DNA of 25,135 bases from a virus: the IMG/VR virus record IMGVR_UViG_3300045944_000416, positions 1-25,135 of that record; one strand, written 5' to 3'. Under the pieces are notes generated by a model. The model had not been told where the DNA came from. It saw only the letters and a list, made by a program, of their open reading frames with translations, and did not search any database. Below are positions 14,261 to 24,011 of the stretch, in pieces. Each line of letters starts with the position of its first letter. Within the stretch, counting starts at the first letter, position 1. The position numbers and the translations under genes were made by a program.

Positions 14261-15325
14261 CTATGCCCTTCGCCGTGTTGTGGTGTTGACGAGCGCCAGC
14301 TTGTCCTCGCGGCTGACCTCGGCGTAGATGTCGAGCAAGACGTCCGGCTTCCGCCATCCGCCCTGTCCCTGGATCGCTTTCAGGTTCTTCCCGGCGCGGA
14401 TGTAGTCCGTCGCTCCCGATCGGCGCGTGCCCCAGTGGAAGGTGACGCCGTTCTGTGCGCGTCCGTAGGGCACATCCGCCTGGCGACAGAGATACTCGAG
14501 CCGCTGGCGCACGGAGCCCGGCCAGTCGCGCGGCCGTTCGGCCCGTCGAAACTTCGGGAACAGATACGTGCTGCCATTGTCGGCCAACGCCTCGACGGCC
14601 GCCAATGCCCGCTTGCCCAGCACGACCTCGTTCGGGTCGTTGTTCTTCGGGTCCGCGATGTAGAGGACGCGGGGATCGTGCGGGTCACGGTGCGTGTGCT
14701 CGAGGTCGAGCAGGTCACTCAGGCGCGTCAGCGTCAAACGGCCGAGCACCAGGATCGCCGTGTCCTGGGCATCTTCGCAGACCCGGAGGAGCCGCACGAA
14801 TTCCCGGCGGGTCGTGTACCGCCGCCGCGGCGGGACGATGCGCAGGCGCTTCATGCCGACGATCGGCGAGACCTCGAGGTACTCCGGCACGGCATCGCGC
14901 AGCATGCTCTTCAGCAGATCGACCTCGCGGTTGATCGTGCGGGCCGCGGCAGTGTCCTTCCGGTGCGTGTGGTACCGCGTGACGGTGTCCTTCGTGATCT
15001 GCGTCAGTAGTTCGCGGCCGAAGAACGCGACGAGGTGCGCGAGCATCTCGGCTTCCCGCCGGGCGCCGGCCCGATGCGCAATCACGTGCGTCGCATACGG
15101 TTCCGCATACGCGGCAAAGCGGATCTGTGTGCGCGCCTGCGGCAGGCGATGAATCGTCTTCGCCTGTTGCAGCAGCGCCTGGTGATAGACGTCCTCGGCG
15201 ACGCGGCGGCTGTCGGTCCGCTGCGCGACGGTCGCGCCGATGCGCACGGCCGTCTTGACTTTCTCTTTCGTCTGCTCGTTGAAGTACCACCAGTACGGCG
15301 AATCGTCGCGGTGAAACACGCCCAT
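14261..15325 (-). CDS. int: Tyrosine recombinase integrase
   Basis: This catalyses site-specific integration and excision at the att site. The protein is 354 aa. The N-terminal arm-binding region is residues 1-60 and the core-binding helices are about 70-150. The catalytic residues are Arg201 (LTRLSDLLDLEH), Lys227 (IADPKNND), His297 and Arg301/302 (FHWGTRRSGAT), Trp324 (GGWRKPD, in place of the second His) and nucleophile Tyr334 (LLDIYAEV). The His-to-Arg spacing, H-x-x-x-R, is one longer than the usual H-x-x-R. The ribosome site AGGAAAGG (15335-15342, - strand) lies nine bases from the ATG. The gene is encoded opposite to the structural genes, next to its attP. Confidence 0.94.
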   Translation of the reverse strand: MGVFHRDDSPYWWYFNEQTKEKVKTAVRIGATVAQRTDSRRVAEDVYHQALLQQAKTIHRLPQARTQIRFAAYAEPYATHVIAHRAGARREAEMLAHLVAFFGRELLTQITKDTVTRYHTHRKDTAAARTINREVDLLKSMLRDAVPEYLEVSPIVGMKRLRIVPPRRRYTTRREFVRLLRVCEDAQDTAILVLGRLTLTRLSDLLDLEHTHRDPHDPRVLYIADPKNNDPNEVVLGKRALAAVEALADNGSTYLFPKFRRAERPRDWPGSVRQRLEYLCRQADVPYGRAQNGVTFHWGTRRSGATDYIRAGKNLKAIQGQGGWRKPDVLLDIYAEVSREDKLALVNTTTRRRA

Positions 15326-15529: not shown

Positions 15530-15736
15530 ATGGCGTCGTTTCAGTCCCGAACGTCGTCGGCGCGAATGTCTTCGGTTGACAGCAAACTCACGGACCGTGA
15601 TGTCCGCATCCTCCGCGCCCTGCATTCGCTGCCGGAGGAGGAGCAGCTACTTCTCGAGCGACTGATTCTCAGCGCCTGTACGCCCTTTCCGTTTCCATCC
15701 GCTCCGTCCGCTCCGGCTGCGCCGGACCCGTTGTAG
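15530..15736 (+). CDS. Small helical protein convergent with the repressor
   Basis: This 68-aa protein has an ATG preceded by GAGG (15518-15521) at eight bases. The middle is a Leu-rich amphipathic helix pair (SKLTDRDVRILRALHSL and PEEEQLLLERLIL), and the tail is Pro/Ala-rich. Its last 90 bases overlap the 3' end of the repressor gene on the other strand. The ALHSLPEEEQLLLERL stretch looks similar in style to the repressor C-terminus (ALPPDERATLLKFL). It may be a small regulator. A chance ORF cannot be excluded. Confidence 0.5.
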   Translation: MASFQSRTSSARMSSVDSKLTDRDVRILRALHSLPEEEQLLLERLILSACTPFPFPSAPSAPAAPDPL

Positions 15737-16066
15737 TCGCAGAAATTTCAAGAGCGTCGCCCGCTCGTCGGGCGGCAACGCGAGCAGCTCGTCGAGGAGG
15801 GATTCGACCTGCGGATCGCGGGGAATGTCGAGCAGACTGATCAGCGAATGGCCGAACACCTGGGCGATGCGATGCAACGTTTCGAGGTCGGCGCCGAATT
15901 CGCCATTGAGGTAGCGCGACATCCAGGCCTGGTTGCGCCCGATGCGCGCCGCCAGGTCGGTCTGCGTCGTCTGCGTGCTCTCAATCCACGCGCGAATCCG
16001 GGCGCGGGCTTGGTCGTCGAAGGTTTGCCGCATCGGGACTAGTATTTGAGTCGTGGCGGCGTCCAT
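15647..16066 (-). CDS. XRE-family helix-turn-helix repressor (CI-like)
   Basis: This is a 139-aa probable lysogeny repressor, divergent from the Cro-like gene. The HTH domain is at about residues 18-80: RARIRAWIESTQTTQTDLAA, recognition helix RNQAWMSRYLNGE, then LETLHRIAQVFGHSLISLL. The C-terminal helical segment (VESLLDELLALPPDERATLL) may dimerise. There is no peptidase-type CI domain, so RecA-driven self-cleavage is unlikely. An internal Met12 (nt 16033) is an alternative start. Neither ATG has a clear ribosome site, so the mRNA may be leaderless. The 3' end overlaps the convergent small gene. Confidence 0.85.
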   Translation of the reverse strand: MDAATTQILVPMRQTFDDQARARIRAWIESTQTTQTDLAARIGRNQAWMSRYLNGEFGADLETLHRIAQVFGHSLISLLDIPRDPQVESLLDELLALPPDERATLLKFLRLQRVRRSRSGRSGWKRKGRTGAENQSLEK

Positions 16067-16134: not shown

Positions 16135-16386
16135 ATGGGAAAGCCGCTCGCCCGCCCGAAAATCGAGTATCCCGACCTCGCCACCTACTTCGCGAAAAGC
16201 GGCGACAGCCAAGCCAATACCGCACGCGTCCTCCGGGTGCCGCAGGCCCATCTGTCGCGCATTGCCGCCGGCCTGATAGTCCCGCGCCCTGAATTGGCGC
16301 AACGGCTCGCCAGCTACGCCCGCATTCCCCTGGACAGTTTCATCACCACGTATCTGCGCCGCCGGGGCGCGGAGGGTGCGGCATGA
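16135..16386 (+). CDS. Cro-like HTH regulator, first gene of the early operon
   Basis: From the ATG at 16135 this reads 83 aa: IEYPDLATYFAKSGDSQANT, then a recognition-helix-like VPQAHLSRIAAGLIVPRPEL, and LASYARIPLDSF. This is a compact XRE/YdaS-like HTH fold. The frame is open further upstream to 16096, but the promoter -10 lies there, so 16135 is the start. It is divergent from the repressor, and the pair forms a lambda-like switch. Its stop overlaps the next ATG (ATGA). Confidence 0.78.
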   Translation: MGKPLARPKIEYPDLATYFAKSGDSQANTARVLRVPQAHLSRIAAGLIVPRPELAQRLASYARIPLDSFITTYLRRRGAEGAA

Positions 16387-16586
16387 GTCCCTATCTCACC
16401 GCACGCGAGACCATCGAATACCTGAGGCTCGGGTCCTCGAGCGCCCTGTACCGGCTGATTCGGGAGCATCGCCTCCCGCACGTCCGCCGCGGCCGGCGGC
16501 TGCTGTTCGACACGCGGGAACTCGACGCTTGGCTACGCGGCCACGGGTCGGCGCTCGAGTGGTCCCGCGCGAAACGGAGTGCCTGA
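16383..16586 (+). CDS. AlpA/excisionase-type winged-helix DNA-binding protein
   Basis: This 67-aa protein has the HTH_17/excisionase pattern: SPYLTARETIEYLRLGSSSAL, YRLIREHRLPHVRRGRRLLF, then DTRELDAWLRGHG. Proteins of this type act as excisionases (bending att DNA to direct integrase) or as transcription activators. It is the second gene of the early operon, coupled by ATGA to the gene before and by TGATG to the gene after. Confidence 0.82.
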   Translation: MSPYLTARETIEYLRLGSSSALYRLIREHRLPHVRRGRRLLFDTRELDAWLRGHGSALEWSRAKRSA

Positions 16587-16852
16587 TGGCGAACGAGATG
16601 CTGGTCCCCGCGCCGGCGGTCACCGCTGATCACCTCGATTTGATCAAGCGCACGGTCGCGCAGGGCGCCACGACCGACGGAACTGAAGCTGTTCCTCTAC
16701 GACAACCAGCGGCAGGGCGTGCATCCGCTCGACCGGCTGATCCACTTCACGAAGCGCAAAGGCAAGTACACGCCCCTGCGCCGGAAGCATTGGCCGCGGC
16801 GCCCGTCCCTGCGCGTGTGCCGGTTCGTATGGGTGTGGCGCCCACGAACTTA
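16586..16852 (+). pseudogene. Frameshifted N-terminal remnant of a Bet/RecT-type annealing protein
   Basis: The first 31 residues (ADHLDLIKRTVAQGATTD) match the start of Bet-type single-strand annealing proteins. The match then continues only in the +1 frame from nt 16680: ELKLFLYDNQRQGVHPLDRL and IHFTKRKGKYTP. That frame degenerates and stops at TAG 16850-16852. One extra G near 16679-16680 explains the break. The original frame runs on into the RecT-like domain through a meaningless 35-residue stretch. The remnant is about 65 residues of a protein normally several times longer. Confidence 0.65.
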
Positions 16853-17806
16853 GAGGAAGGATGGCGGCTGGCGCAGATGCTCGCCCAGAGCGAGCTCGTG
16901 CCGAAAGGCTATCGGAGTCGGCCGGCCGACGTCTTAGCGGCGATCCAGTACGGCATGGAAGTCGGCTTGCCCCCGATGGCCGCGCTGCACGGCGTGTACG
17001 TCACCAATGGCCGGCCGGCGATGTGGGGAGAGACGATGCTGGGCGTCATCATCGCGTCGCCGCTCTATAAGGACCATGAGGAGTATTACCTCGCGGCGGA
17101 CGGGCGCCGCGTCGACGTCATCGGCGCGAGCGATCTCGCGAAGGATGATACGACGGCCGTGACGACGTTCTGGCGCACGGACTCCGCGCGCCCACGAACC
17201 GCCTCCTTTTCGGTTGCCCAGGCCAAGAAAGCCGGCCTACTCGGCAGAGAAGGTCCCTGGCAGACGTATCCGGATCGCATGCTGAAGATGCGCGCGCGCG
17301 GCTTCGCGGCGCGGGATGCGTTTCCCGATCTGCTTCGCGGGATTCGCACGACCGAGGAAGCGCTTGACACGCCGGATGAAGCCGTGATCGATTTGCCCGT
17401 CGCCGCGGCCCCGGTCGAACCCCGTCGGGCGAGCGCCAACGCCCGGCCGGGCGCAGACCTGCCTGCCGCCGCTGAGCCGCCGGCGCCGAGCCCCACGGCG
17501 TCGCGCGGCCCCGCCCCGGTCACGACCGAGCGCGGCCTCCTGATCACCGGCGTCGCCACCGTGACGCCGCCGCAAGGCGAGCCCTACGTCGAGATCACGT
17601 TGAAGACCGGCACGGGCGCCGCCCGGATGGTCGTGACGCGTGACGAGGCGATCGCCCGCGAGGCCGAGTCCTTCGCGGGCACCGATCACGCAGTCGTGAT
17701 CACGACCCACGAAGCGCGACGCGCCGATCTGAATGGCCGCGTGCTGGTCCTCGACGCCCTGGCGATCGACGACTCGGTGGTGTCCGCGACGGGCCTCTTC
17801 GAATAG
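16586..17806 (+). CDS. RecT-like single-strand DNA annealing protein (hybrid N-terminus)
   Basis: The open frame is 406 aa. Residues 82-260 are a RecT-family core: NLEEGWRLAQMLAQSELVPKGY, AAIQYGMEVGLPPMAALHGV, VTNGRPAMWGETMLGVII, SFSVAQAKKAGLLG, and PDRMLKMRARGFAARDAFPD. These promote annealing of phage DNA ends during recombination. About 260-320 is a Pro/Ala linker. Residues 321-406 form a beta-rich, OB-like ending (PYVEITLKTGTGAARMVVTR). Residues 1-66 come from a frameshifted Bet remnant. An in-frame ATG at 16829 would give a clean 325-aa RecT-like protein, but it lacks a clear ribosome site. The nuclease gene follows, as in RecE/RecT pairs. Confidence 0.8.
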   Translation: MANEMLVPAPAVTADHLDLIKRTVAQGATTDGTEAVPLRQPAAGRASARPADPLHEAQRQVHAPAPEALAAAPVPARVPVRMGVAPTNLEEGWRLAQMLAQSELVPKGYRSRPADVLAAIQYGMEVGLPPMAALHGVYVTNGRPAMWGETMLGVIIASPLYKDHEEYYLAADGRRVDVIGASDLAKDDTTAVTTFWRTDSARPRTASFSVAQAKKAGLLGREGPWQTYPDRMLKMRARGFAARDAFPDLLRGIRTTEEALDTPDEAVIDLPVAAAPVEPRRASANARPGADLPAAAEPPAPSPTASRGPAPVTTERGLLITGVATVTPPQGEPYVEITLKTGTGAARMVVTRDEAIAREAESFAGTDHAVVITTHEARRADLNGRVLVLDALAIDDSVVSATGLFE

Positions 17807-17815
17807 GACCCGGCC

Positions 17816-18469
17816 ATGCTGCGCTTCGACGGCTCGCCGGGCCATCACGACTATTTCCTCGACGAGATCCCGACGCCCTCGACGACCGGGGTGATCGGCG
17901 CGGCGGGCCTGTACCAGTTCGACCACGTGCCGCCCTTCATCCTCGAGGCGGCGCGCCGGCGCGGGTCGGCGGTGCATCAGCTCGTGCACTTTTCGAACGA
18001 GGGCGACCTCGACGAGACCTCGATCGACCCGGCGTGGCGGCCGTATCTGGACGCCTGGGAACGCTGCCGCCAGGAACGCGCGATCCAGATCCTCCTCTGC
18101 GAGTACCGCGTCGCGTCCCGCCGGCATCGGGTGGCCGGCACGATCGACCTTCTCTGCACGATCGGCGACGACGGCTGGATCCTCGACTATTGCACCGGCG
18201 ACCTGGCCGACTGCCACAAGGACATTCAGACGGCCGGTTATCTCGGCCTGGCGTTCGAGTGGGCGCAGGAGGATCTCACGCTCAGCGCCGTGCTCGATCG
18301 GCATCGCCGCTGGCGCCGCGCCGGCGTCCGACTGCTCAAGAGCGGATCGTTCCGGTTCGTCGAATACACCGACCCCTGCGACTACCACACGTTCCTGACG
18401 CTCGCCGCGGCGTATCACATCCGGCGCGATCGCGGCGTGCGGCTGTCGTTCGAAGACCTCGAGGCCTGA
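17816..18469 (+). CDS. RecB/Cas4-like PD-(D/E)XK exonuclease, catalytic Lys replaced
   Basis: This 217-aa protein follows the RecT-like protein, matching exonuclease plus annealing-protein recombination pairs. Family motifs are present: RRRGSAVHQLVH (His54), LLCEYRV (Glu96), AGTIDLL (Asp111), WILDYCTG (Asp124) and IQTAGYLG (Gln138 and Tyr142, the QxxxY motif). Where family members have D-x-K-T-G, this one has D-Y-C-T-G with Cys126 (codon TGC). At least two base changes separate TGC from a Lys codon, so a single read error is not enough. Lys135 is nearby but not in the usual place. The protein may be inactive, altered, or work through another lysine. Confidence 0.8.
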   Translation: MLRFDGSPGHHDYFLDEIPTPSTTGVIGAAGLYQFDHVPPFILEAARRRGSAVHQLVHFSNEGDLDETSIDPAWRPYLDAWERCRQERAIQILLCEYRVASRRHRVAGTIDLLCTIGDDGWILDYCTGDLADCHKDIQTAGYLGLAFEWAQEDLTLSAVLDRHRRWRRAGVRLLKSGSFRFVEYTDPCDYHTFLTLAAAYHIRRDRGVRLSFEDLEA

Positions 18470-18471
18470 CC

Positions 18472-19260
18472 ATGCCGAGTCGTGCGAAGCCTGTCGTCGA
18501 CGTCCCGTTGCCCGATCCGGGGGCCGTCGTCCGGTACTACCCGAACCCGCAGGAGATCATCCGCGCCTACGTCGAGAGCGACTTCGCGCGCGCCCTGGCG
18601 GTCGAGCACGAGCGCCTGGTGGCGATCGCGACCGCCGAGGGGGCCGACGTCACCGACGCCGCCTCCTACGTGCGGGTGGGCGAGCGCCTGGTCGAGCTCG
18701 TCGAGCACCGGCGCACCGTCACCGAGTGGTTCAAGCCGCTGCGCGAGCTCGCGTATCGCCTGCACCGCATGGTCTGCGATCGGGAAACCGCGGTCCTCGA
18801 TCCGATCGTCCGCTTCGAGACCGCCGCGAAAACCAACCGGCTGCGGCTCGAGCGGGAAGAAGCCGAGGCCCGCCGGCGCGAAGAGCAGCGCCTCGCCGCA
18901 GCCGCGCGCGAGCAGGAACGGGAACGCCTCGCGCGCGAAGCGGCGGATCTCGAGGAACGCATGGAGCCCGAGCTCGCGGCGCAGGTCCTCGAGCAGGCAG
19001 TCCATGTCCCGGCGCCGGTAGTGGTACTGCCCTCGACCTTACCGGTTACGCCCGGGATCAGCTCGCGGCCGCGGTGGCTGTGGAGGCCGGTGGGCGGCGA
19101 GGGAGCGGCGGCCAAGGCCCGGGCCATTCAGCTCGTGCCGCGCGAGTTCCTCACACTCGACACCGTCAAGATCAACGCCTATGTGCGGAGCCACGGCGCG
19201 TCGGCGCGGATTCCCGGGATCGAAATCTATGACGCCGGCAGCGTCACGGTGCGGACGTAA
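18472..19260 (+). CDS. Coiled-coil protein in the recombination cluster
   Basis: From the ATG at 18472, two bases after the nuclease stop, this reads 262 aa. The N-terminal third is globular (YYPNPQEIIRAYVESDFARA), then VTEWFKPLRELAYRLHRMVC leads into a long Arg/Glu coiled coil (about 118-170). The last 40 residues (VPREFLTLDTVKINAYVRSH and ARIPGIEIYDAGSV) form a small conserved-looking domain. Proteins of this layout occur beside recombinases in many phages, but their function is not established. The high Glu/Arg content makes antisense frames look open. Confidence 0.72.
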   Translation: MPSRAKPVVDVPLPDPGAVVRYYPNPQEIIRAYVESDFARALAVEHERLVAIATAEGADVTDAASYVRVGERLVELVEHRRTVTEWFKPLRELAYRLHRMVCDRETAVLDPIVRFETAAKTNRLRLEREEAEARRREEQRLAAAAREQERERLAREAADLEERMEPELAAQVLEQAVHVPAPVVVLPSTLPVTPGISSRPRWLWRPVGGEGAAAKARAIQLVPREFLTLDTVKINAYVRSHGASARIPGIEIYDAGSVTVRT

Positions 19261-20286
19261 ATGAAGGCACGTTCGACCGCGCTTCGTCGGCGGCCATCGG
19301 CCGAGACCATCGTGTTACGCGATCGGGTGATCCTTCGTCTTCGCGAAGCGGAACGAGCGCTCCGGTCTGCGTCGTCGGTCGATCAAGTCAAGCTCGTGAT
19401 GGACGTCGCCGCAGCGCAACAGGTATTCGCTCAGCGGCAACGCCTGGGCGAAGAGGCGATCGGCCATGCCCATGCGGTCAAGATGCGGGCACTCGCGCGG
19501 CTCGGGGAGCTGCTGAAGGACCTGCCGAAAGCGAAAGGCGCACGCGGACAAGGCAGACCAGCAAAAGGCGGTACCCGATCGGAACCGCCTAAGACGACTC
19601 CGACGCTCGCCGAGATGGGTGTCTCAAAGAAGGTGGCCTCGGTCGCGCAACAGCTCGCCGATCTCCCAGACGCAACCCGCGAGGCGATCGCGCAGCGTGA
19701 GACGACGATTGCGCAGGTGCGCCGCAAGGTGAAGGCTGCGGCGATCCGCGAGGCCGCCAGTCTGCCCGACGCGAAGTTCCGTGTCCTCTATGCGGACCCC
19801 CCCTGGTCGTACAACGACAAGGCTGACGCGGGATCAGTTCAGGCCGGCGGGACCGGGATCCACTACCCATCGATGTCGATTGCCGAGCTCTGCGCGCTTC
19901 CCATTCGGCCGATCTGTGATGACCACGCGGTGTTGTTTCTCTGGGTGACATCACCGTTGCTCGCTGAGTGCTGGCCAGTGATCGAGGCCTGGGGCTTCGC
20001 CTACAAGGCGTCATTCGTCTGGGACAAGGTGAAGCACAACATGGGGCACTACAACTCGGTCCGACACGAGCTCCTGCTGTTGTGCACACGCGGCAGTTGC
20101 ACGCCCGATTCGGCTGAGTGGTTCGATTCGGTGCAGAGCGTCGAGCGCACCACGCACAGCGCCAAGCCAGAGATCTTCCGCAGCATCATCGACACGCTCT
20201 ATCCGATCGGTAAGCGGCTCGAATTGTTCGCGCGCAGCGTGGCTGCGCCAGGCTGGGCGGTCTGGGGTAACGAGGCGACGGCATGA
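19261..20286 (+). CDS. MT-A70-type adenine-specific DNA methyltransferase
   Basis: This 341-aa protein starts directly after the previous stop. The N-terminal 165 residues are helical with a basic linker (KAKGARGQGRPAKGGT) and a ParB/HTH-like part (LAEMGVSKKVASVAQQLADL). The catalytic domain begins at FRVLYADPPWSYND, with DPPW at 179-182 as the N6-adenine motif, and continues HYPSMSIAELCALPI, AVLFLWVTSPLLAECW, SVRHELLLLCTRG and RSIIDTLYPIGKRLELFAR. It transfers methyl from S-adenosylmethionine to adenine in phage DNA, probably for protection from host restriction. It overlaps the next gene by ATGA, so the two proteins are probably made together. Confidence 0.9.
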   Translation: MKARSTALRRRPSAETIVLRDRVILRLREAERALRSASSVDQVKLVMDVAAAQQVFAQRQRLGEEAIGHAHAVKMRALARLGELLKDLPKAKGARGQGRPAKGGTRSEPPKTTPTLAEMGVSKKVASVAQQLADLPDATREAIAQRETTIAQVRRKVKAAAIREAASLPDAKFRVLYADPPWSYNDKADAGSVQAGGTGIHYPSMSIAELCALPIRPICDDHAVLFLWVTSPLLAECWPVIEAWGFAYKASFVWDKVKHNMGHYNSVRHELLLLCTRGSCTPDSAEWFDSVQSVERTTHSAKPEIFRSIIDTLYPIGKRLELFARSVAAPGWAVWGNEATA

Positions 20287-20858
20287 GTTACGCCGCCTAT
20301 CGCCGCACGAAGATCGAGTCCGGCCTGTGTTATCAGGACTTCGTCGTCGATGTACTGCTGAAAACAATCGGCCTGGCGGTCGTCCAGTACTCGAGTCAGT
20401 TCTATCAGCAGACCGTGGGGGAGTCGAGAACCGGCGTTGAGATCAAGCACGACGAGCTCTACGCCAAGACGGGCCACTTCTGGATCGAAGTGGCGGAAAA
20501 GGCCGTGCCGCGGCCAGGACCGTACGCGCCCTCAGGGATTGATCGCGGCGACAACACCTGGCTCTACGTGATCGGCAACTACGACACGATCTTCATCTTC
20601 GGCAAGGTCTCGCTGCGGGCGCTGTGGGCCAGTGGTCGCTATCCGGTCCTCGAAAACCACACGAAAACATCGCAGGGTTTTCGCCTGCCCGATGCGGTCG
20701 CTCGGAAGGTGGCCCTGGTCATTCTGACGCCGAACGCGGAACGCAAAGTCGCCAGCGCGATTCGCGACCTCCAGACGCTCGGGCGCGAGTTGCACCGGAT
20801 CGCGATGGGGTTGCCGACGAGTCTGAGTCTCTTCGGCGACGAGGACGAGCCTCTATGA
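20283..20858 (+). CDS. Putative restriction-endonuclease-like (PD-(D/E)XK?) protein paired with the methyltransferase
   Basis: This 191-aa protein is coupled to the methyltransferase. Residues 18-75 suggest a nuclease-like core: a helix (YQDFVVDVLLK), GESRTGVEIKHDELY with Glu53 and Lys55 as a possible E-x-K pair, then HFWIEVAEKA with Glu69 and Glu72. A second beta section follows (NTWLYVIGNYDTIFIFGK). It ends FGDEDEPL. I recognise similar proteins in phages but know no tested activity. Pairing with an adenine methyltransferase raises the possibility of a phage-borne restriction-modification-like unit. The nuclease assignment is inference. Confidence 0.6.
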   Translation: MSYAAYRRTKIESGLCYQDFVVDVLLKTIGLAVVQYSSQFYQQTVGESRTGVEIKHDELYAKTGHFWIEVAEKAVPRPGPYAPSGIDRGDNTWLYVIGNYDTIFIFGKVSLRALWASGRYPVLENHTKTSQGFRLPDAVARKVALVILTPNAERKVASAIRDLQTLGRELHRIAMGLPTSLSLFGDEDEPL

Positions 20859-21100
20859 CGCTGCAACCCGAGGACCTGATCGCGCGCGACATGCGGCTCG
20901 ATCACGCGAAGGCGCAGGCCCGCGGCCAACGCATTCATGATCTGGCCGACCTCTGCGTCAGCGAACTGATCGCCGAAGGCTATCTCCCGTCACAACATCG
21001 GATTCCCGCGCGCATCGTGCTGTTCCCGATCCTCGCCGACGACATTTACCCGCTGGTGTCCGTCGACATCCCGCCGCGGAGGGACCATGGCGTCGACTGA
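20855..21100 (+). CDS. Small hypothetical protein
   Basis: An 81-aa protein whose ATG overlaps the previous stop. The N-terminal helix is charged (LIARDMRLDHAKAQARGQRI), followed by DLADLCVSELIAEGYLPS and a beta ending (FPILADDIYPLVSVDIPP). There are no membrane segments or known motifs. It overlaps the next gene by 14 bp. Confidence 0.6.
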   Translation: MTLQPEDLIARDMRLDHAKAQARGQRIHDLADLCVSELIAEGYLPSQHRIPARIVLFPILADDIYPLVSVDIPPRRDHGVD

Positions 21101-23236: not shown

Positions 23237-23520
23237 ACGCGTTCCAGGAACACGTGCGCTGCAATCGCTGTGGCAAGCGGGTGTCCGGCGTCGATCCCGA
23301 GCTCGGGATCGTCGTCCGCGCGTGGGTGCAGTGTCCCGAGTGCCTGGAGCACGACGCGCAGCAGGCCGTGGCTGTCGGTGATCGCATCCAGATCTCCGTC
23401 GAACTGATCCGCCAGATTACTGAAGAACCCGACTTCACGACGCACGTGGTTCAGGTGCGTGAGGTGCGCGCGGCCTCAGACGGAACCAAGGTGCTCGTCT
23501 TGGAGCGTATCCCGGAATGA
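23233..23520 (+). CDS. Zinc-ribbon protein
   Basis: This 95-aa protein starts at a GTG overlapping the previous stop. The N-terminal pair CNRCGKRV and CPECLEHD gives two CxxC knuckles about 25 residues apart, a classic zinc ribbon. The C-terminal half is a beta-rich domain (GDRIQISVELIRQ, THVVQVREVRAASDGT). It may be a DNA- or RNA-associated accessory protein; there is no specific family. Its stop overlaps the RusA start. Confidence 0.68.
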   Translation: MNAFQEHVRCNRCGKRVSGVDPELGIVVRAWVQCPECLEHDAQQAVAVGDRIQISVELIRQITEEPDFTTHVVQVREVRAASDGTKVLVLERIPE

Positions 23521-24011
23521 CGCTCGCTTTTCGCGTCTACGGCGTCGCGCAGCAGATGGGCAGTAAACGCGCTTTCGTCCCGAAAGGCTGGACGCGTCCG
23601 GTGATCACTGACAGCAACAAGAACCTGAAAAGCTGGCAACAGCTGGTGAGCGAGGCGGCCAACCGCGCGTTGCACGAGCTGCCCGCGACCGAGCGCACGC
23701 TGCTGCTCGAGGGCGTGCGCCTCACGATCGCGTTTTATCTGCCGCGCCCGGCGTCCCTGCCGAAGCGCGTGACCGCGCACACGAAAGCGCCTGACGTCGA
23801 CAAGTGCGTCCGCGGCCTGGCTGATGCCCTCACCGGCGTCGTGTTTCGCGACGACGCGCAGATCGTCGACCTGGTCGCGATGAAACGCTACGCCGGCGCC
23901 GGCGAACTGCCGCACGTGGACATTCGCGTGGAGCCGAGTTTGGGTGTCGTGCCGATCGCGGTCGACCAGCCGCTGTTTACGCGATCGATGTTCCACCAGA
24001 CAGGAGGGTGA
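23517..24011 (+). CDS. rusA: RusA-family Holliday junction resolvase
   Basis: This 164-aa protein cuts four-way junctions formed during phage recombination and replication. The family pattern is clear: FRVYGVAQQMGSKRAFVPKG at the N-terminus, LTIAFYLPRP, then KAPDVDKCVRGLADALTGVV with Asp93 and Asp95 as metal ligands, followed by FRDDAQIVDLVAMKRY with Asp112/Asp113. It works downstream of the annealing protein and nuclease in the same operon. The C-terminal 30 residues extend beyond the core domain. Confidence 0.92.
   Translation: MTLAFRVYGVAQQMGSKRAFVPKGWTRPVITDSNKNLKSWQQLVSEAANRALHELPATERTLLLEGVRLTIAFYLPRPASLPKRVTAHTKAPDVDKCVRGLADALTGVVFRDDAQIVDLVAMKRYAGAGELPHVDIRVEPSLGVVPIAVDQPLFTRSMFHQTGG

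What the first reader, a model, noticed from the sequence alone, without database searches (positions are those of the whole stretch)
19261..20858. Adenine methyltransferase coupled to a nuclease-like protein
An MT-A70 methyltransferase overlaps by ATGA a 191-aa protein with a plausible G-E-x-x-x-G-V-E-I-K core. A coupled modification/cleavage pair in a phage recombination operon could be a phage-borne exclusion system, or a device to cut unmodified host or rival DNA. The second protein's family is not functionally described as far as I know.
Basis: inference. Interest (0 to 1): 0.65.

Follow-up and report, generated by a model that had tools for sequence, protein, structure and literature searches.

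The report
Phage methyltransferase–nuclease pair, probably restriction-modification
A temperate phage carries an adenine DNA-methylating enzyme whose gene overlaps that of a small, undescribed DNA-cutting-type enzyme; the two stay together across dozens of otherwise unlike phages, so they probably form a virus-owned restriction-modification system, and the cutting enzyme also exists in a second version whose chain is circularly rearranged.

Summary
An MT-A70 methyltransferase (19261-20286) overlaps by ATGA a 191-aa ORF (20283-20858) in the early operon of a temperate phage. (1) AlphaFold2 (pLDDT 84.7) gives a PD-(D/E)XK nuclease fold; the best PDB match is I-Ssp6803I (Z 8.2), followed by HinP1I, PvuII and RecU. 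(2) Glu47, Glu53, Lys55, Asp57, Glu69 and Glu72 are identical in 35 aligned relatives and in all 16 relatives found through the methyltransferase alone. (3) The pair is conserved: MT-A70 lies directly upstream in 49 of 50 evaluable loci; in the reverse direction 22 of 28 independent close methyltransferases have a nuclease directly downstream. Six of those 22 carry a second nuclease form, a circular permutant of the same fold (hhalign score 63.2 rotated, 42.8 unrotated, shuffled maximum 21.6; AF2 pLDDT 87.8). The canonical family is almost confined to viruses (1 weak hit in 991 other cellular genomes). Best explanation: a phage-owned type II-like restriction-modification module. Cleavage, shared specificity and benefit to the phage (rival exclusion or host DNA attack) are inferred. 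I found no description of either nuclease form in what I could search.

The parts
19261..20286 (+). MT-A70 family N6-adenine DNA methyltransferase, 341 aa: variable N-terminal part (about 1-165) and catalytic domain (about 170-340)
   Evidence: Pfam PF05063 E 3.5e-21; phrog_359 DNA methyltransferase E 1.3e-58, PADLOC MTase_II E 4.2e-46; solved relatives MTA1/METTL3-type MT-A70 proteins
19795..19806 (+). Methyltransferase catalytic motif DPPW (residues 179-182)
   Evidence: read from the sequence; D, first P and W invariant in 14 aligned partners, DPAW in two marine rows
20283..20286 (+). ATGA stop/start overlap of methyltransferase and nuclease (translational coupling inferred)
   Evidence: sequence; in relatives the nuclease homology starts -16 to +30 nt from the methyltransferase stop
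20283..20858 (+). PD-(D/E)XK-fold nuclease-like protein, 191 aa, distant relative of phrog_13596
   Evidence: AF2 pLDDT 84.7, pTM 0.75; fold matches all PD-(D/E)XK enzymes in the top 25 rows; phrog_13596 E 1.3e-3 for this protein, matched by 35 of 35 homologues
20418..20453 (+). Predicted active site GESRTGVEIKHD: E47, E53-x-K55, D57
   Evidence: invariant in 35 homologues and in 16 of 16 found only through the methyltransferase
20487..20498 (+). Second conserved strand with E69 and E72
   Evidence: invariant in the same sets
20855..21100 (+). Next ORF, 81 aa, starting in the ATGA that ends the nuclease gene; same operon, function unknown, not claimed as part of the system
16376..19260 (+). 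Upstream genes of the same operon: RecT-like annealing protein, exonuclease, phrog_10477 protein
   Evidence: PHROGs E 9.1e-46, 1.9e-15, 1.6e-12

Best explanation
The two genes are a phage-owned, type II-like restriction-modification module. The MT-A70 enzyme methylates adenine at a specific site in phage DNA; the small PD-(D/E)XK enzyme cuts the same site when it is unmethylated. The methyltransferase is first and the nuclease start codon lies inside its stop, so protection tends to be made before or with the cutter. In this temperate phage the pair sits in the early lytic operon, so it would act after induction or infection against unmodified DNA: co-infecting rivals, host chromosome, or both. 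Shown here: nuclease fold, invariant catalytic-type residues, two-way conserved pairing, purifying selection, virus restriction. Inferred: cleavage, shared target site, protection by methylation, benefit.
For: PD-(D/E)XK fold. Invariant E47, E53, K55, D57, E69, E72. MT-A70 directly upstream in 49 of 50 evaluable nuclease loci and in 4 of 4 cellular-bin loci. Reverse direction: of 34 close methyltransferases, 22 have the canonical nuclease and 6 the permuted form downstream; without the 6 loci already known, 22 of 28. Both topologies keep the same partner in the same place. Genome context otherwise varies, so the two genes move as a unit. MTase and nuclease distances correlate, r 0.39, above all 5,000 permutations (maximum 0.36). 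Nuclease dN/dS 0.04-0.29. Precedents for virus-owned R-M exist in marseilleviruses and chloroviruses (PMC7253447).
Against: No cleavage or methylation data; target unknown. The mirror-tree signal is modest and relatedness is not controlled. L008 and L018 carry the nuclease at 59-61% identity with a far more distant MT-A70 (35-38%), and some members have no methyltransferase at all (Eistla gp31, L193, L140, L160, L162, L165, L167). These show that the nuclease can be kept without this partner. A temperate phage expressing a cutter in an unmodified host also risks its own DNA until methylation is complete.
Confidence: 0.6

Rival explanations
1. The nuclease is a DNA-processing enzyme of phage replication or recombination (junction resolvase, or a MutH-like nicking enzyme that reads methylation to tell strands apart), and the methyltransferase marks the DNA it acts on.
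For: RecU and Hjc resolvases are among the fold matches (Z 5.6 and 4.2), MutH is weak (Z 2.3). In the window the pair follows RecT and exonuclease genes. Eistla gp31 lies between DNA polymerase and exonuclease without a methyltransferase.
Against: This phage already encodes a RusA resolvase (23517-24011) and Eistla has a separate endonuclease I. Neighbours of the pair are not a constant recombination set. A resolvase does not need a tightly coupled methyltransferase.
Confidence: 0.2
2. The nuclease is a free-standing homing endonuclease that spreads its own gene or the pair.
For: The closest solved fold is the homing endonuclease I-Ssp6803I, Z 8.2, rmsd 3.3 over 116 residues.
Against: No intron; the gene overlaps its neighbours on both sides and keeps the same upstream partner in nearly all loci across unlike phages. 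Homing endonucleases settle at target sites, not behind one gene family.
Confidence: 0.07
3. The small protein is not a cutter in practice but a DNA-binding subunit or specificity factor of the methyltransferase, kept together for that reason.
For: Constant adjacency and overlap; MT-A70 enzymes elsewhere work with partner subunits (established for METTL3-METTL14).
Against: The most conserved residues are charged catalytic-type residues of the PD-(D/E)XK core. Members occur without any methyltransferase.
Confidence: 0.1

Closest known systems
Type II restriction-modification systems (separate MTase and PD-(D/E)XK REase)
   Same: Adjacent, overlapping MTase and small PD-(D/E)XK gene; MTase scored as PADLOC MTase_II; REase-like partner diverges faster than MTase
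   Different: Carried by phages in a lytic operon and nearly absent from cellular genomes; no match of the nuclease to any PADLOC, Pfam or NCBIfam family; specificity unknown
Virus-encoded R-M of marseilleviruses and chloroviruses (PMC7253447)
   Same: MTase paired with REase in a virus genome
   Different: Eukaryotic viruses; activity measured there, not here
phrog_13596 (phage protein family, unknown function; e.g. Pelagibacter phage Eistla gp31)
   Same: Same nuclease core; 35 of 35 homologues match it
   Different: Eistla gp31 has no adjacent methyltransferase; window protein matches only at E 1.3e-3
I-Ssp6803I homing endonuclease (PDB 2ost)
   Same: Closest solved fold, Z 8.2
   Different: 10% identity; no intron here
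Orphan phage MT-A70 methyltransferases, e.g. GATC-specific PhiBZS1_p32 (PMC7556043)
   Same: MT-A70 enzyme in a temperate phage
   Different: No nuclease partner reported there; the closest cultured-phage MTases found here are under 43% identical, and none of the seven checked has a recognisable nuclease downstream

Membership tests
MT-A70 methyltransferase | Pfam PF05063 domain above cut-off with DPPW | tested here: met
   76.3 bits against 23.9; DPPW 179-182
MT-A70 methyltransferase | N6-adenine methylation of DNA | not testable with these tools
   needs an assay
PD-(D/E)XK nuclease superfamily | Core fold | tested here: met
   AF2 model matches I-Ssp6803I Z 8.2, HinP1I 6.0, PvuII 5.8, RecU 5.6, D212 5.5, DpnI 5.0; Foldseek E-values alone were weak, best 0.075
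PD-(D/E)XK nuclease superfamily | Conserved D/E followed by (D/E/Q)-x-K | tested here: met
   E47-x5-E53-x-K55 invariant; permuted form D129-x9-(Q/E)139-x-K141
PD-(D/E)XK nuclease superfamily | Metal-dependent phosphodiester cleavage | not testable with these tools
   needs protein
Type II restriction-modification system | MTase gene paired with REase-type gene | tested here: met
   49 of 50 and 22 of 28 loci
Type II restriction-modification system | Both enzymes recognise the same site; methylation blocks cutting | not testable with these tools
   target unknown
Type II restriction-modification system | Restriction of incoming unmodified DNA | not testable with these tools
   needs plaque assays
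phrog_13596 | Profile match | tested here: inconclusive
   window protein E 1.3e-3 over 67 residues; homologues down to 2e-8 and L111 4.2e-18
Homing endonuclease | Located in an intron or inteln, or inserted at its target | tested here: not met
   gene overlaps both neighbours in an operon; constant partner
Holliday junction resolvase | Four-way junction cleavage | not testable with these tools
   fold alone does not decide; phage has RusA

The most novel reading that the evidence does not exclude
A virus-owned class of MT-A70 restriction-modification modules in which one nuclease fold occurs as two natural circular permutants, each retained behind the same methyltransferase clade, and used by phages to attack unmodified rival or host DNA during lytic growth.
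Probability: 0.45. Interest if true: 0.75.

Novelty: new variant of a known kind. Interest (0 to 1): 0.62.

Why it matters
Phages are usually seen as the targets of restriction; most phage methyltransferases are read as orphan shields. A widespread phage clade whose methyltransferase nearly always travels with a nuclease suggests that these phages also own the cutting half. If active, it would be a family of new restriction enzymes and a testable weapon between phages. The two circularly permuted forms of one nuclease, kept by one partner family, would be a clean case for studying how PD-(D/E)XK enzymes change topology while keeping function.

Tried and rejected
First genome-contig scan with three sequences found nothing; a deeper alignment found four loci. 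phmmer/hmmsearch against the PDB found no sequence relative. Pfam Tospo_nucleocap (3 of 12 members, E 6e-4) was dropped as chance: fold and motif disagree. Foldseek and VIA of the permuted model gave no PDB match: a sequential aligner is not expected to match a permutant, so this absence is not evidence for a new fold. An early reading of D57 and E69 as the catalytic pair was dropped after the permuted family showed D-x9-(Q/E)-x-K, which maps to E47, E53, K55. A third group of ORFs behind more distant MT-A70 genes ('DEK' motif: L088, L093-L096, L098, L100, L103, L118, L121, L134) looks nuclease-like by eye, but hhalign to the window family gives 4% probability; not claimed. No MTase-nuclease fusions found. 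Cultured-phage MT-A70 loci checked: no recognisable nuclease downstream. The cellular search with the permuted profile was empty but had no positive control, so no claim is made for that form.

Full report
WHAT IS THERE. The window is a 25,135-base IMG/VR virus record, a temperate tailed phage: terminase, portal and capsid genes, an integrase (14261-15325, -), a repressor (15647-16066, -) and an excisionase-type gene opening a rightward operon. That operon runs RecT-like protein, exonuclease, phrog_10477 protein, MT-A70 methyltransferase (19261-20286), the 191-aa protein (20283-20858) and an 81-aa ORF, with ATGA overlaps before and after the 191-aa gene. RusA lies further on.

THE SMALL PROTEIN IS A NUCLEASE BY FOLD AND RESIDUES. 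It has no Pfam, NCBIfam or PADLOC match and only a weak PHROG match, phrog_13596, E 1.3e-3. All 35 homologues match that same family of unknown function. AlphaFold2 on 35 aligned sequences gives pLDDT 84.7, pTM 0.75. Foldseek E-values are weak (best 0.075, I-Ssp6803I), but realignment ranks I-Ssp6803I at Z 8.2 (rmsd 3.3, 116 residues), and the rows below it with Z above 5 are HinP1I, PvuII, RecU and D212, all PD-(D/E)XK enzymes. Middling Z values can be common arrangements, so the claim rests on the agreement of fold with motif: E47-x5-E53-x-K55-x-D57, plus E69 and E72. These are invariant in 35 homologues. Because one search pattern contained E53 and K55, I checked the 16 homologues found only through the methyltransferase: all 16 keep all six residues.

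THE PAIR IS REAL. From the nuclease side: of 50 loci with sequence upstream, 49 have MT-A70 immediately before the nuclease; the exception, L016, has a different DNA methyltransferase (phrog_67) downstream. Four of four loci from cellular bins and both copies on the Candidatus Megaera plasmid pPCS148 also show the pair; one plasmid copy has a shortened methyltransferase. Many contigs are near duplicates; 37 pairs remain after removal of those within 10% distance in both proteins. From the methyltransferase side: 34 of the best 80 hits form a close clade (52-78% identity), of which 22 have the canonical nuclease, 6 the permuted one and 6 neither. Six of the 34 are contigs already known from the nuclease scans; without them the count is 22 of 28. 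The 46 more distant MT-A70 genes have neither family by these profiles, although L108, L111 and L114 carry a phrog_13596 relative. The scan kept only the best 80 of at least 585 relatives, so the clade is sampled, not counted.

A CIRCULARLY PERMUTED SISTER. The six ORFs that replace the nuclease carry its parts in the opposite order. A scan found 41 viral loci, 35 of 40 evaluable with MT-A70 directly upstream. Profile-profile alignment gives 41 columns (score 42.8) as it stands, but 112 columns (score 63.2, probability 96.4%) if the sister is rotated at residues 70-110; 60 column shuffles reach at most 21.6. AlphaFold2 of L074 (pLDDT 87.8, pTM 0.81) gives the same elements in rotated order: window [H3-29, H39-44, E52-56, E65-72][E94-98, E103-107, H108-117, E130-136]; sister [E18-23, E28-33, H34-42, E56-65][H89-105, H121-125, E138-142, E156-164]. 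The sister's motif D129-x9-(Q/E)139-x-K141-x-D143 fixes the active-site reading of the window protein. I did not find this permutation in the papers searched, but the main survey of the superfamily is not held, so priority is not established.

DISTRIBUTION AND EVOLUTION. Apart from the genomes used as centres, the canonical profile hit none of 397 proteobacterial, one (weak, E 9e-5, a prophage-like locus without methyltransferase) of 298 in the phylum of G001, and none of 296 in the phylum of G004. The family is therefore essentially viral. No cultured phage in INPHARED carries a close relative. Nuclease dN/dS is 0.04-0.29. MTase and nuclease distances correlate at r 0.39, above 5,000 permutations, but relatedness is not controlled. 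L008 and L018 show a partner exchange.

HOW IT PROBABLY WORKS. The simplest reading is a type II-like restriction-modification module owned by the phage. Constant pairing, methyltransferase-first overlap, faster divergence of the nuclease and variable context all fit. The steps from 'nuclease fold' to 'cuts unmethylated sites' are inference. Whether the target is a rival phage or the host chromosome cannot be decided from sequence; both precedents exist among viruses of eukaryotes: marseillevirus R-M is proposed to act against competitors, chlorovirus R-M against host DNA (PMC7253447). A virus-derived modification-dependent nuclease has also been proposed to exclude other viruses (PMC10101028).

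LIMITS. The alignments are shallow for AlphaFold2; records are metagenomic fragments; the target site is unknown; methyltransferase-less members show that the nuclease can have another use.

Noticed in passing
L059, L060, L068, L074, L075, L082, L138-L178: A sister nuclease family that is a circular permutant of the window protein, behind the same methyltransferase clade.
   Followed up: yes
L140, L160, L162, L165, L167: Permuted nucleases with no MT-A70 gene upstream; how these phages avoid self-cutting is unknown.
   Followed up: partly
L008, L009, L018: Nuclease about 60% identical to the window's, but its methyltransferase is a distant MT-A70 (35-38%): partner exchange.
   Followed up: partly
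L088, L093-L096, L098, L100, L103, L118, L121, L134: Overlapping 120-230 aa ORFs behind other MT-A70 genes share a D..(D/E)EK..LLE..S...GW motif; possibly a further nuclease family, not supported by profile comparison.
   Followed up: partly
L023, L028 and other marine loci: Methyltransferases with DPAW instead of DPPW in the catalytic motif, still paired with an intact nuclease.
   Followed up: no
AP017966.1 (L004, L192): Candidatus Megaera plasmid pPCS148 carries two copies of the pair, one with a shortened methyltransferase, near an antirepressor: probably phage-derived.
   Followed up: partly
L193: Lone distant nuclease relative (GIDFLIE..GIEVKTD..SGNFFLEY) in a prophage-like region of a cellular genome, no methyltransferase.
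   Followed up: partly
L120 3522-5132: An MT-A70 gene overlapping by ATGA a cytosine-5-methyltransferase-like ORF.
   Followed up: no
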